Source of the DNA: Siphlonurus alternatus
Lineage: Eukaryota; Arthropoda; Insecta; Ephemeroptera; Siphlonuridae
Assembly: GCA_949825025.1 (NCBI GenBank)
Contig: OX463778.1
Coordinates: 37,258,571 to 37,322,570, forward strand
DNA: 64,000 bases
Direction of reading: 5' to 3'
Position numbers and translations under genes: made by a program. Under the pieces are notes generated by a model. That model worked only from the letters and a program-made list of their open reading frames with translations. It made no database searches and was not told the DNA's origin. The number at the start of each line of letters is the position of its first letter. The first letter of the stretch is position 1. Positions 29,985-59,503 of the stretch are shown in pieces.

Positions 29985-30217
29985 CTTAGAGTACATGAGG
30001 CTGAGCGGGAGACTCATGGCGACAGAAAGCAACCATACAAAGATGATCTTGAGCACGACACGTTTCCTCGTCTTGTTTCGTCCGAACCTCATGGGGTAGC
30101 GTAAGCTGAGGAAGCGGTCCACACTGATGGTACACAGGTGCATGATGGAGGCCGTGCAGAAAAGCACGTCCAGACATACCCACGCCAGGCAGTACTCGCT
30201 CGGTAGTGGGAAGAAGC
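29985..30217 (-). CDS. 5-HT2B: 5-HT2B exon 3: TM3 with DRF motif, ICL2 and TM4
   Basis: The acceptor is TTTTGTGCAG, with two bases completing Gly101. The donor AAG|GTAAGA is phase 0. The exon encodes PLPSEYCLAWVCLDVLFC, in which Cys110 is 3.25 and Asp117 is 3.32. TASIMHLCTISVDRFLSLRY follows, then PMRFGRNKTRKRV in ICL2 and TM4 (IIFVWLLSVAMSLPLSLMYS). Counting from Asp3.32 puts D at 3.49, R at 3.50 and F at 3.51, so the DRY Tyr is Phe. No frame break is seen. The same DRF is what I recall for crustacean 5-HT2beta. Confidence 0.96.
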
Positions 30218-33200
30218 CTGCACAAAATGCAGAACATTCATTGAATGTTAACTCGATACTGTAACACATTGCAAGAAGTAATGTAAATTTCAAATGAATG
30301 TTTAAATTATAGATTTTGTAGTGAGTGCTAGTATAAATTTTCAAGTATAATATTCAATAAAGAAATTAATTGAATTTCTTTCATAATATATATCATCAAA
30401 GTAAAAAAAGTTTGTGCATTCGAAAAATATATTATATATTTATTATAAAGGGTGTAGACTTTTTTGCATTTGACATAGTTTTAAAACTTTCGAATCGGGA
30501 TTTTTTAATTTTCGGTTTAAAACTGTATTGTGTTTATTTAATTGAATTATTTACTAATTTCAAAGCGTTTCGAGTTTTTATTTTACTTTACAATTATAAT
30601 TTGTATAAACTGAACTATTTTAATATTCCCCAGCGTTCTATAATCTACCTTTTTACTTAATAAATGAACTCATTTACAAGTTTTCATCCAAATTGAATAA
30701 CACGGGAGGAAAAAGTGAAACTATGTCCGCTTGTTGACGGTGTTAATTTTTGACCATGCGTGCAGGAATAACGTGGAGTCGTGGACGCTCTGATCCATCT
30801 TTGCCATTCAGATTAGAGAATATTTATCGGATTAAAAAAAAAAAAAGTTTACGCTTGCTGTAATAAAAAGCTTTATAAAGTTAGATTTTTTTTTTTAAAT
30901 CTAACTTTTATTTTATTATGCTAAAAAAAAAAATCGATAGCAGCTACTCTGCTGCACATTGTTGAAATATAGGTTTTATTTCAGTTATATATAAAAAAAA
31001 AGACGTTGAAGCTTATATTAAATCTCTTAACGTAGTTTTAACAGATTAAAAAATAAATCAAATTTAAATTATATCTTCTTTCTTATTATCAACACTTCAT
31101 CATTTTAATGAATTTATTTTGCTTGACAGCTTTCATATTTATATATACACATATTATCTATTCTAGCAATTATTTTTGTTCTATAAATTTGATTTGCATA
31201 TTATTATTTTGTTGGTCATTATGTACATATTTATATATATATATATAGTGGGCGGAAAGAACCTCTAGCCTCTTCCCCAAATCAACGTGACGGGAATAAA
31301 AATATTTTTTTGTTAACTTCATTAAAAGTTCGCGTGGTAACTGGAACATAGTCAAAGTATTGATATCACGTGTAGAGCTAACACGTGTCACAATCGTGCG
31401 TGACACGTGCGTTCTACCATGACGTGAAAACTTGCACTTGACAGCTGGATAGAGACGATCGGAAATGAAGTGTAAACGAATAAAAAAAAAAGTTGGGTGC
31501 TGATCACTTTGCGTGTGGTGTTAATATATTTTATTATATAATGTCACGCGGTTACATAACTTTCGCGTGTTTCTTTGTCTTTATCTGTATGTAACAGACT
31601 ACAGCTTATAAATTATATGCATGATAAGAATACTGCTATGAAAGTAAGATGTTTAATTAATAATTTATTTGGTCATAGAAATTACGTGATGTTTTGAGAG
31701 TATTTACTACCAAGGACTTTATAGTATTATAGTAAATTCAATAACTATACTATTTTAAGTTTAAGCTTAAAATATACATGTTACATTTTATTTATTTTTT
31801 TTTTTTCAATTCCATGTGACTTTTCTTTCTGAACGTATATATTATATGTAATTACATGTGAAAATAATTGTTATTATATACAATATAATTATTTTTTAGA
31901 TAATTTTAATGAGTTTGTTTCATTGTTTTATTTATTTGTATTTTTAATACAAAGTTTTAGAGTGTTATCTAAATTAAAATAACGTTCATGAAGTTATAGT
32001 AAAATATATTGATATTTTTTCTTGGCCTAATTATAATCATAAAAGGTTTAGAGCTAATAGTAAAAATATAATATGTATACACATATTATATAAGCCCTGT
32101 TATTTATATTTAATAGCTTGCCATGTTTGTGAAGTGACTCCGCCTGTGTGATGGTATATGAAGGCGTGAAAATTTTGTCTTCGACTCCCCCCCGTGTACA
32201 TCGTCTCCCTGTTAAACACCGCCCCGCTCCGTGCTGCTGCCTTCGTCGTCACTTAATCGAGTTACCGTGCACTTAAGATTCGAGAGTTACGTAATTTGTC
32301 GCGATGTGCCAAATCTGGTTACAAGCCCCCTCCCCCTCTCTCTTTCTCTCTCTTTTCTCTCTCACCCATCAAAATTTGATCTTTTTTACCACTAAAATTA
32401 ATCTAAATTGAGACATGACTGAATATGAAAAATCCATTTTAATGTGAACAAAATCTAAATAAAAAATGTACTATATATTATAATTTGTGTTTATTTTAGA
32501 AGTATGTTAACGCTAACATTTTTTTTTCTTCTTATAATAAAGTTAATTATGGAATTCAATTTAAAAAAAGAAATACGGAGAGAGAAATGGGTGTAAATAA
32601 ATTAAATTTCCTGTCAGACTCGTATTTCAGACAATCTTGTTATTATAACACCATATTTAGAGTTTTTTTTTTAAATATATATTCTACATCTTTTTGTATA
32701 GGAATATTAGGGGTTTTAACGTTCCTAGCTCTTCAGAACCAAGTCTGAGATTTGCTTTTAATTAGTGAAAGGTAAAGAGGTAAAAAAATATATATATTAT
32801 ATAATATGTATATATATTTTTTTGGAGTGGTGTAAAAAAAGCTGTACGAAAAAAGGAAAAAAGAAAGCCCTTTGCTGCCTTAAAAAGTAAAAAATTAATA
32901 AATTAAATAATAATAATAAAACTACGCAAAAGTTAAATATGTACTGCTGTCATATTTATATATACTAAAAATAATTCATTTACAAGCTACAAACTCCTAA
33001 AAATTTTCAAGTAAATGATATTTTTCAATTGAATTGAAAGTACTCAGTACTTAAAAAAAAAAAAATTTAAAATTTTATGAAATACTTCCATCCTCCCACC
33101 TTTTTAATTGATTATTACCCTGTTTAATTATTAAATATGAAATAAACCACCTATGGGTAAAACATACAAAATCATAATCACATGTTTAATGGAAAGATTC

Positions 33201-33267
33201 AGTGCAGTGACAGCAACATCCACTTGTCCCAGCTATTCCAATTAGGATTCGCATCCATCTCTCCCTC

Positions 33268-33268
<1 letters not shown>

Positions 33269-33318
<50 letters not shown>
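33269..33318. repeat. (TC)n microsatellite in 5-HT2B intron 2
   Basis: About 25 units. Confidence 0.95.
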
Positions 33319-33319
<1 letters not shown>

Positions 33320-58166: not shown

Positions 58167-58211
58167 TCAACATGCTAACATTAAAGGGAATAAACTGGCT
58201 TTGGGGCTCAC
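58167..58211 (-). other. Alternative read-through C-terminus of 5-HT2A
   Basis: If the donor at 58211 is not used, the frame continues 14 codons (VSPKASLFPLMLAC) to TGA. The composition turns AT-rich here, which suggests intron sequence, so the spliced form is preferred. Confidence 0.35.
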
Positions 58212-58503
58212 TTGCTGGAGTCTGGAGTACGCTAACCTTGCTGGCGGGGGTGGTGCCCCTCGGCAACGCAGTAGTCTGAGCAGCGCGGCGCGGAAGGAAC
58301 GGTTGAAGACGGTGTAGATGATGGGGTTGATGGTGGAAGAGCCGTAGCCGAGCCAAAGGCACACGGAGAAGAGGCCAGGCGATGGTGAGGCGCAGCGTGG
58401 ACACACGGCCACCAAAACGTTCAGCACGAAGAAGGGCGCCCAGCAAAGCACGAACGACGCAAACACCAGTCCCAGCACCGTTGACGCCTTGTGCTCTGAC
58501 AGC
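58212..58503 (-). CDS. 5-HT2A: 5-HT2A exon: TM6, TM7 and helix 8
   Basis: The acceptor is TGATGATGCAG. The exon reads LSEHKASTVLGLVFASFVLC (Glu6.30) and WAPFFVLNVLVAVCPRC, then TM7 with LWLGYGSSTINPIIYTVFNR and helix 8 SFRAALLRLLRC, and a Pro-rich GAPPPPARLAYSRLQQ. I end it at the donor CAGCAA|GTGAGC (phase 0), which joins a good terminal exon at 57863. Reading through that donor instead adds VSPKASLFPLMLAC and a TGA at 58167, a possible alternative C-terminus. Confidence 0.88.
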
Positions 58504-58743
58504 CTGCATCATCAGAATATTAATTTTACTACAAACTGCAAACAGTGTTAGTAACTCTACAGCTATATAGCAACGACAAACATAATTATAACTATAATAT
58601 AACTTCTTTTCCTTACGTATAAATACGACTAAATCGTTTTATTTATTTTTATTTGTTCATAAACTGGTAAAGTTCCAACATTAATATTTTCAACCAAATT
58701 TGCAGAGATTTATATGTAAAGAAGCGCACTGGGGGGTTCACAC

Positions 58744-59180
58744 CTGAGCTGCGAGGGTAGAACCGGTGCTCGTAGTCTGATGCTCCGTGTCTCGCAGCTG
58801 CTCCTGCTACCGCCTCCGTTGCTGCTTGCCCCTCTCACGGAGGACGAGACCCGAGAAGCACGGGACCCTCCGTTGGCCAGCCGTGCGTTTAAGGGTGCTG
58901 CGCCCGGGGTGGAGGCAGGTCGGCCTTGTTGCAACAGCCTCTGCGCCCGGGCCTTGGCTCCGAACTGTGCCTTACGTCTCAGCAGATGTAACGTGAGGGC
59001 ATAGCTGCCCACCATAAGCAGCATGGGTGCGTAGAAAGAAGCAATAGAACCAAACAGAGAGAACGCACGGTTGTTGATGTTGCACGAACGCGGGTCAGGC
59101 ATGATGTTTTCCGGGTCGTGCGCTCCCAGAACGGTGATGGAACTTGAGATTAGAGCGGCTAGCAGCCAGGTAAACGCTAC
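58744..59180 (-). CDS. 5-HT2A: 5-HT2A exon: TM4, ECL2, TM5 and ICL3
   Basis: The acceptor TGTTTTACAG is phase 0. The exon begins VAFTWLLAALISSSITVLG (TM4), then an ECL2 AHDPENIMPDPRSCNINNRA with the disulfide Cys. TM5 is FSLFGSIASFYAPMLLMVGS (Ser5.43, Ser5.46, Pro5.50) followed by YALTLHLLRRKAQ. ICL3 is short, about 90 residues, and rich in Ser, Arg, Gly and Ala. The donor CTCAG|GTGTGA is phase 2 and completes an AGG Arg codon with the next exon. The upstream intron is only 153 bp. Confidence 0.94.
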
Positions 59181-59333
59181 CTGTAAAACACCAATGGCTG
59201 TATCAATCACTAAATTCTTGTAATGTACACTGTATTAAAGTCGTCAAAAAATTACATACATTTTTTTATAAGTTTTAAATAAGAGAATCGTATTAATTTT
59301 GGCATAAAATAGCTGCAGTATTCTTTGTGGTAC

Positions 59334-59503
59334 CTTCTTTGCAAGCTGTCGCTTTGAGCGGCGGTGCCTTGCGCGGAGAGGGCTGCGGATGCCAAGGTAG
59401 CGTCCTAGGCTGATGACGCACATGTGCAAGATGGAGGCAGAACACGCCAGCACGTCGCTTGTCACATAAACGCTGCACCACGCCACCCCCAGCGGCCAGT
59501 ATC
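59334..59503 (-). CDS. 5-HT2A: 5-HT2A exon: TM3 with GRY motif and ICL2
   Basis: The acceptor is AATTTGCAG, with two bases completing Gly. The exon encodes YWPLGVAWCSVYVTSDVLAC (Cys3.25, Asp3.32) and SASILHMCVISLGRYLGIR. Counting from Asp3.32, position 3.49 is Gly, followed by Arg3.50 and Tyr3.51, so the acidic residue of DRY is missing. ICL2 continues SPLRARHRRSKRQLAKK. The donor AAG|GTACCA is phase 0. This is a different intron site from gene 1, whose equivalent exon runs on through TM4. Confidence 0.94.

What the first reader, a model, noticed from the sequence alone, without database searches (positions are those of the whole stretch)
29985..59503. Tandem 5-HT2 receptors with different lesions of the DRY switch: DRF in one, GRY in the other
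Counting from Asp3.32, gene 1 has D-R-F and gene 2 has G-R-Y at 3.49-3.51, and both keep Glu6.30. The DRY/Glu6.30 network restrains class-A receptors. I recall that DRF in decapod 5-HT2beta was linked to agonist-independent activity, and that GRY occurs in insect 5-HT2alpha. Gene 2 lacks the acidic residue altogether, so both neighbours may have raised basal signalling, which would be notable for a linked pair. The functional effect is inference.
Basis: partly seen in the sequence, partly recalled or inferred. Interest (0 to 1): 0.85.

Follow-up and report, generated by a model that had tools for sequence, protein, structure and literature searches.

The report
Mayfly serotonin receptor pair, variant DRY
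This stretch of a mayfly-like insect genome holds a neighbouring pair of serotonin 5-HT2 receptor genes; one carries the Gly-Arg-Tyr switch usual for its family in insects, the other an Asp-Arg-Phe switch otherwise met here in crustaceans, which makes mayflies a useful place to test when self-active serotonin signalling arose.

Summary
The reading is right. On the minus strand lie 5-HT2beta (gene 1, D-R-F) and 5-HT2alpha (gene 2, G-R-Y); both keep Asp3.32, Arg3.50 and Glu6.30. The window comes from a mayfly or close relative.

GRY is no lesion: 117 of 120 listed 5-HT2alpha proteins have Gly3.49, and the blowfly GRY receptor showed no raised basal Ca2+ (PMC3493529 passage). Linkage is not special: alpha and beta share a contig length in 25 species. 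DRF is the unusual part: of 156 listed 5-HT2beta proteins with TM3, 151 are DRY; the five DRF are three mayflies and two amphipods. Decapods have DRF too, where a paper title ties it to agonist-independent activity.

Most likely: an ordinary inherited pair, gene 1 modestly self-active (inferred), gene 2 not (inferred). Open question: is DRF old in Pancrustacea and reversed in other insects, or gained twice? Separately, mayfly 5-HT2alpha has changed TM6 and helix 8 residues that nearly all relatives examined keep.

The parts
42050..42253 (-). Gene 1 (5-HT2beta / 5-HT2B), exon with TM1-TM2; a short 5' coding exon upstream was not placed
   Evidence: acceptor CAG, donor GT; 88% and 93% identical to Cloeon and Neocloeon proteins
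29985..30217 (-). Gene 1 exon with TM3-ICL2-TM4, bears D-R-F
30111..30119 (-). Gene 1 DRF codons GAC CGC TTC (3.49-3.51)
26046..26283 (-). Gene 1 exon with ECL2-TM5 and start of ICL3
22576..23735 (-). Gene 1 last coding exon: long ICL3, TM6 (Glu6.30), TM7, stop
   Evidence: unnamed protein P0004 is 98% identical over 64% of the query, this part
63426..63640 (-). Gene 2 (5-HT2alpha / 5-HT2A), exon with TM1-TM2; 5' coding exon(s) not placed, perhaps outside the window
59334..59503 (-). Gene 2 exon with TM3-ICL2, bears G-R-Y
59397..59405 (-). Gene 2 GRY codons GGA CGC TAC (3.49-3.51)
58744..59180 (-). Gene 2 exon with TM4-TM5-ICL3
58237..58503 (-). Gene 2 exon with TM6 (Glu6.30), TM7, helix 8; donor CAAG|GTTAGC
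   Evidence: replaces the read-through end 58167
57719..57863 (-). Gene 2 last coding exon, C-terminal tail ending ...ATFDILP stop
   Evidence: matches the C-terminus of the mayfly relatives P0121-P0123

Best explanation
These are the mayfly orthologues of the two arthropod 5-HT2 receptors, in a head-to-tail pair that was probably inherited from early insects. Gene 2 (5-HT2alpha) carries the Gly3.49 that is the family norm, so it is most likely a serotonin-gated, Gq-coupled receptor with low basal activity. Gene 1 (5-HT2beta) differs from the DRY 5-HT2beta of the other insects examined by Tyr3.51Phe in an otherwise unchanged TM3. By analogy with decapods this probably loosens the resting state and gives some serotonin-independent Gq signalling, with serotonin still the agonist. 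Shown: gene identity, motifs, conservation, linkage, distribution among the listed relatives. Inferred: age of the pair, coupling, basal activity of gene 1, low basal activity of gene 2.
For: Orthology: gene 1 groups with mayfly 5-HT2beta (100*) and gene 2 with mayfly 5-HT2alpha (100*), tree; 76% and 78-81% identity to named mayflies; 7tm_1 1.4e-58 and 2e-57; best solved relatives are chains named 5-HT2A and 5-HT2C. GRY norm: 115 GRY + 2 GRC of 120; PMC3493529 passages state the Gly in Calliphora, Drosophila and Apis, and basal Ca2+ similar to non-transfected cells. DRF: 5 of 156 listed 5-HT2beta with TM3, three mayflies and two amphipods; decapod peptide DRFLSLRYPMKFGRHKTRRR, 17 of 20 identical to the window. 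Y3.51F is the only strict mayfly-versus-DRY fixed change in TM3-ICL2. Shared contig length in 25 species.
Against: No expression or activity data for either gene. The decapod link between DRF and basal activity is known here from a title only. The low-basal result is for one fly receptor, while mayfly 5-HT2alpha has extra changes in TM6 and helix 8 (6.31, 6.35, 6.42, 6.43) that could alter its basal activity independently of GRY. In several species the listed alpha and beta sit on contigs of different length, so the pair is not universal.
Confidence: 0.65

Rival explanations
1. Both neighbours are agonist-independent: loss of Asp3.49 in gene 2 and Tyr3.51 in gene 1 each release the resting state.
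For: Ionic-lock theory for class A receptors (passages of PMC9822836); DRF precedent in decapods (title); mayfly 5-HT2alpha has extra derived residues in TM6.
Against: The blowfly GRY receptor had basal Ca2+ similar to non-transfected cells; Gly3.49 is in 117 of 120 listed insect 5-HT2alpha, so it looks compensated or neutral; Glu6.30 and Arg3.50 kept.
Confidence: 0.17
2. DRF and GRY are both functionally near-silent variants; neither receptor is notably self-active and the differences reflect drift or coupling bias.
For: Asp3.49, Arg3.50 and Glu6.30 kept in gene 1; Phe for Tyr is conservative; GRY without basal effect in the blowfly.
Against: Title of Clark et al. 2004 ties the altered DRY motif to agonist-independent activity in decapods; 3.51 is Tyr in 151 of 156 listed 5-HT2beta with TM3, so it is not a free site.
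Confidence: 0.16
3. Sequence or assembly error, or RNA editing, hides a normal motif.
For: Tyr TAC to Phe TTC and Asp to Gly are each single-base changes.
Against: Same residues in three other mayfly species and, for Gly, in most listed insects; placed exons intact.
Confidence: 0.02

Closest known systems
Decapod 5-HT2beta (Panulirus 5-HT2betaPan, Procambarus 5-HT2beta)
   Same: Same receptor name group as gene 1, same DRF motif; 17 of 20 residues of the published antibody peptide identical
   Different: Crustacean versus insect; basal activity reported there (title only seen), not measured here; full decapod sequences were not obtained
Amphipod 5-HT2beta (Hyalella azteca P0257, Trinorchestia longiramus P0269)
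   Same: DRF with TM3 3.32-3.56 identical to the mayfly
   Different: Long branch; later parts diverged
Insect 5-HT2beta with DRY (flies, bees, cockroach, termite and others)
   Same: TM3, ICL2 and TM6 nearly identical to gene 1
   Different: Tyr instead of Phe at 3.51
Insect 5-HT2alpha with GRY (Drosophila, Apis, Calliphora)
   Same: Gly3.49, Arg3.50, Tyr3.51, Glu6.30
   Different: Mayfly members have His6.31, Thr6.35, Ala6.42, Ser6.43 and a helix 8 Leu where most others have Gln, Lys, Phe, Thr, Phe

Membership tests
Arthropod 5-HT2beta (gene 1) | Groups with 5-HT2beta and apart from 5-HT2alpha in a tree | tested here: met
   mayfly clade 100* inside the beta side (99*); 79 rows, motif columns left out
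Arthropod 5-HT2beta (gene 1) | Aminergic core: Asp3.32, Trp6.48, Phe6.52, Glu6.30, NPxxY | tested here: met
   NPIFY read from the translation
Arthropod 5-HT2beta (gene 1) | Serotonin activates Gq | not testable with these tools
   Needs an assay
Arthropod 5-HT2alpha (gene 2) | Groups with 5-HT2alpha | tested here: met
   mayfly clade 100* inside the alpha side (100*)
Arthropod 5-HT2alpha (gene 2) | Gly at 3.49 | tested here: met
   shared by 117 of 120 listed
Arthropod 5-HT2alpha (gene 2) | Low basal Ca2+, serotonin-gated, as in Calliphora | not testable with these tools
   Needs an assay; fly result
Self-active DRF 5-HT2beta of decapods | DRF at 3.49-3.51 | tested here: met
Self-active DRF 5-HT2beta of decapods | Agonist-independent activity that depends on the altered DRY | not testable with these tools
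   Inference by homology only

The most novel reading that the evidence does not exclude
DRF in 5-HT2beta was the ancestral state of Pancrustacea (or of the ancestor of Malacostraca and insects), kept by mayflies and malacostracans and reversed to DRY in the other winged insects, so self-active 5-HT2beta signalling would be old and its loss part of neopteran evolution; in mayflies a self-active beta sits beside an alpha receptor that was itself remodelled at TM6 and helix 8.
Probability: 0.3. Interest if true: 0.6.

Novelty: new member of a known kind. Interest (0 to 1): 0.36.

Why it matters
It corrects the picture of the pair: GRY is the rule among the insect 5-HT2alpha proteins listed, DRF a mayfly exception shared with malacostracan crustaceans. 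Because one residue in an otherwise unchanged TM3 separates DRF from DRY receptors, mayflies offer a clean natural test of what Tyr3.51 does in a serotonin receptor and whether self-active 5-HT2beta is ancient or arose twice.

Tried and rejected
Own-genome search for further 5-HT2 copies: the genome search was busy in all nine tries of the same request; so extra paralogues are not excluded.

Clark et al. 2004 and Spitzer et al. 2008 are not held; their data are known here from titles in reference lists and from passages of citing papers.

A motif-focused protein search was meant to list DRF bearers. It had 222 candidates, 120 shown, and the two DRF amphipods ranked among DRY rows, so it is not an exhaustive census. 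I recognised no decapod, dragonfly, branchiopod, springtail or chelicerate among the names shown (names are cut short and some rows have none).

The first gene 2 model ran through a donor site to a false end at 58167; it was used for and replaced after comparison with relatives. A scan for the short 5' coding exon of gene 1 gave one unconvincing candidate, 55946-56006; not accepted.

The tree puts the amphipods inside a beetle group, which I take for a long-branch artefact; the test whether all DRF rows form one clade did not finish and was not repeated. NCBIfam gave nothing for four relatives, as expected of a library for bacteria and archaea. Structure prediction was not run: a static model would not settle basal activity.
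Full report
What is in the window. Two rhodopsin-like receptor genes lie head to tail on the minus strand. Gene 1 has four placed coding exons, 42050-42253, 29985-30217, 26046-26283 and 22576-23735. Gene 2 has five, 63426-63640, 59334-59503, 58744-59180, 58237-58503 and 57719-57863; the last was found by comparison with relatives. The borders between placed exons are AG and GT, and neither joined frame has an inner stop. The 5' coding exons are not placed. Both joined proteins match Pfam 7tm_1 (1.4e-58 and 2e-57), and the best solved relatives are chains named 5-HT2A for gene 1 and 5-HT2C for gene 2 (taken as human from recall). 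Receptor position numbers (Ballesteros-Weinstein) were counted from Asp3.32 and Pro6.50; the scheme itself is recalled.

The observation. Gene 1 reads D-R-F and gene 2 G-R-Y at 3.49-3.51, with codons GAC CGC TTC and GGA CGC TAC; both have Glu6.30.

Whose genome. The closest named proteins for both genes are from mayflies: Cloeon dipterum, Neocloeon triangulifer and Ephemera danica, 76% for gene 1 and 78-81% for gene 2 (taxonomy). An unnamed protein, P0004, is 98% identical over 64% of gene 1, the part of its last exon. The tree has 79 rows: 40 of the 156 listed beta proteins with TM3 (6 chosen, 34 drawn at random), 35 of the 120 alpha (7 chosen, 28 drawn), the two window genes and two outgroup chains, with the motif columns left out. 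Gene 1 falls with the three mayfly 5-HT2beta (100*) and gene 2 with the three mayfly 5-HT2alpha (100*). The species itself was not identified.

How common the motifs are. Of 120 listed 5-HT2alpha proteins, 115 are GRY, 2 GRC and 3 DRY (the DRY ones are P0176 and P0233, both Temnothorax, and P0225, Onthophagus taurus). Of 158 listed 5-HT2beta proteins (120 and 38 new), 156 include TM3: 151 are DRY and 5 DRF. fell back on a looser pattern where needed; the stricter pattern read 155 of the 158 (150 DRY, 5 DRF) and 119 of the 120 (116 Gly, 3 Asp). The five DRF are the three mayflies and two amphipods, Hyalella azteca and Trinorchestia longiramus (taxonomy). Glu6.30 was seen in 120 of 120 listed beta proteins; in alpha it was Glu in 106, Lys in 2, Gln in 1, and not located in 11 of 120. 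These are the best-scoring rows of larger hit lists (306, 449 and 222), ranked by likeness to the mayfly query, so they are no fair sample of arthropods. I recognised no decapod among them; the decapod DRF is taken from an antibody peptide quoted in PMC3022547 (passage), identical to the window at 17 of 20 positions.

How clean the DRF change is. From 3.32 to 3.56 the five DRF receptors have the majority residue of the 150 DRY ones at every position but 3.51. In the 79-row alignment, with a strict criterion (fixed in the target, absent from the DRY rows, those at least 85% uniform), the 4 mayfly beta rows differ from 35 DRY beta rows at six sites: 3.51, the end of TM5, and four in ICL3. Counting the amphipods as well leaves two, 3.51 and one ICL3 site. 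One search also shows Val6.46 in all five DRF rows where 120 of 142 DRY rows have Ile and 22 Val. On the gene tree 3.51 needs two changes, but that tree misplaces the amphipods. On the accepted species relations (taxonomy, the rest recalled), with malacostracans and mayflies Phe, the other listed insects Tyr and the outgroup chains Tyr, one gain with a reversal and two gains cost the same, so the listed data cannot choose.

What the literature says on function. [quoted passage not shown] This speaks against raised basal signalling from GRY as such. Clark et al. 2004 (title only, seen in reference lists; [quoted passage not shown] PMC9822836 (passages) gives the ionic-lock background. No paper in the held library has both 'mayfly' and '5-HT2'.

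The linkage. Alpha and beta hits share a contig length in 25 cases, out of 113 and 112 distinct lengths (typed): three mayflies, a termite, Anabrus, Schistocerca, Macrosteles, nine beetles, four ants, two moths and three butterflies; Lycorma adds one more. Many of these contigs are whole chromosomes, so this shows the same record, not adjacency. Locus tags are neighbouring in Cardiocondyla (012533, 012532) and Abscondita (08379, 08378), two apart in Cryptotermes and Ephemera, but 26 apart in Loxostege. Against it: Apis cerana, Nomia melanderi, Calliopsis, Aphidius, Harpegnathos, Chelonus, Temnothorax americanus, Pieris brassicae and Dufourea list the two on contigs of different length, which may mean separate chromosomes or separate scaffolds or assemblies. 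I read the pair as an inherited arrangement, lost in some lineages; that is inference.

A second oddity, in gene 2. By the same criterion the 4 mayfly alpha rows have 21 fixed differences among 246 conserved columns; Lepidoptera alpha 4 of 192, Hymenoptera 1 of 183, Coleoptera 1 of 199; mayfly beta 6 of 286, Hymenoptera beta 0 of 272, Diptera beta 0 of 258, and Lepidoptera beta (2 rows only) 9 of 276. Random four-row subsets of four other clade sets gave means of 0.4-4.6 and a maximum of 7. Mayflies are taken to have split first from the other insects in the set (recalled; the gene tree does not show it), so part of the 21 may be changes in the others. But Thr6.35, Ala6.42 and a helix 8 Leu replace Lys, Phe and Phe, which nearly all other alpha and beta rows and both outgroup chains have, and His6.31 replaces a Gln of nearly all other alpha and beta rows and of the 5-HT2A chain. 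These lie on the cytoplasmic half of TM6 and in helix 8 (structural knowledge, recalled), so gene 2 may differ from fly 5-HT2alpha for reasons other than GRY.

Mechanism, committed. Gene 1: Asp3.49, Arg3.50 and Glu6.30 can still form the resting network; loss of the Tyr3.51 hydroxyl probably weakens it a little, giving modest self-activity as the decapod title reports (inferred). Gene 2: Gly3.49 is the family state, most likely compensated, with low basal activity (inferred; the mayfly TM6 changes are the main doubt). Confidence in the two together is 0.65.

Verdict. Observation confirmed; interpretation partly supported. A new member of a known kind, with one good evolutionary question attached.

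Noticed in passing
Gene 2 exon 58237-58503 and relatives P0121-P0123: Mayfly 5-HT2alpha has 21 clade-specific fixed residues at positions otherwise conserved in the insect 5-HT2alpha compared, including His6.31, Thr6.35, Ala6.42, Ser6.43 and a helix 8 Leu.
   Followed up: partly
P0176, P0233 (Temnothorax), P0225 (Onthophagus taurus): Three 5-HT2alpha proteins have DRY instead of GRY, apparently two separate returns to Asp3.49 on the tree.
   Followed up: partly
P0174, P0195 (Choristoneura fumiferana): 5-HT2alpha with G-R-C, a change at 3.51 as well as 3.49.
   Followed up: no
window 15375-15939: Tandem array of a 197-base unit, 2.8 copies, 88% matches.
   Followed up: no
window 259-428 and 10530-10667: Long perfect TC dinucleotide runs of 170 and 138 bases.
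   Followed up: no
window 1-22500: I recognised no gene in the ORF list; three ORFs tried from this stretch gave no Pfam match and the window has no Rfam match at gathering score. Not searched exhaustively.
   Followed up: partly
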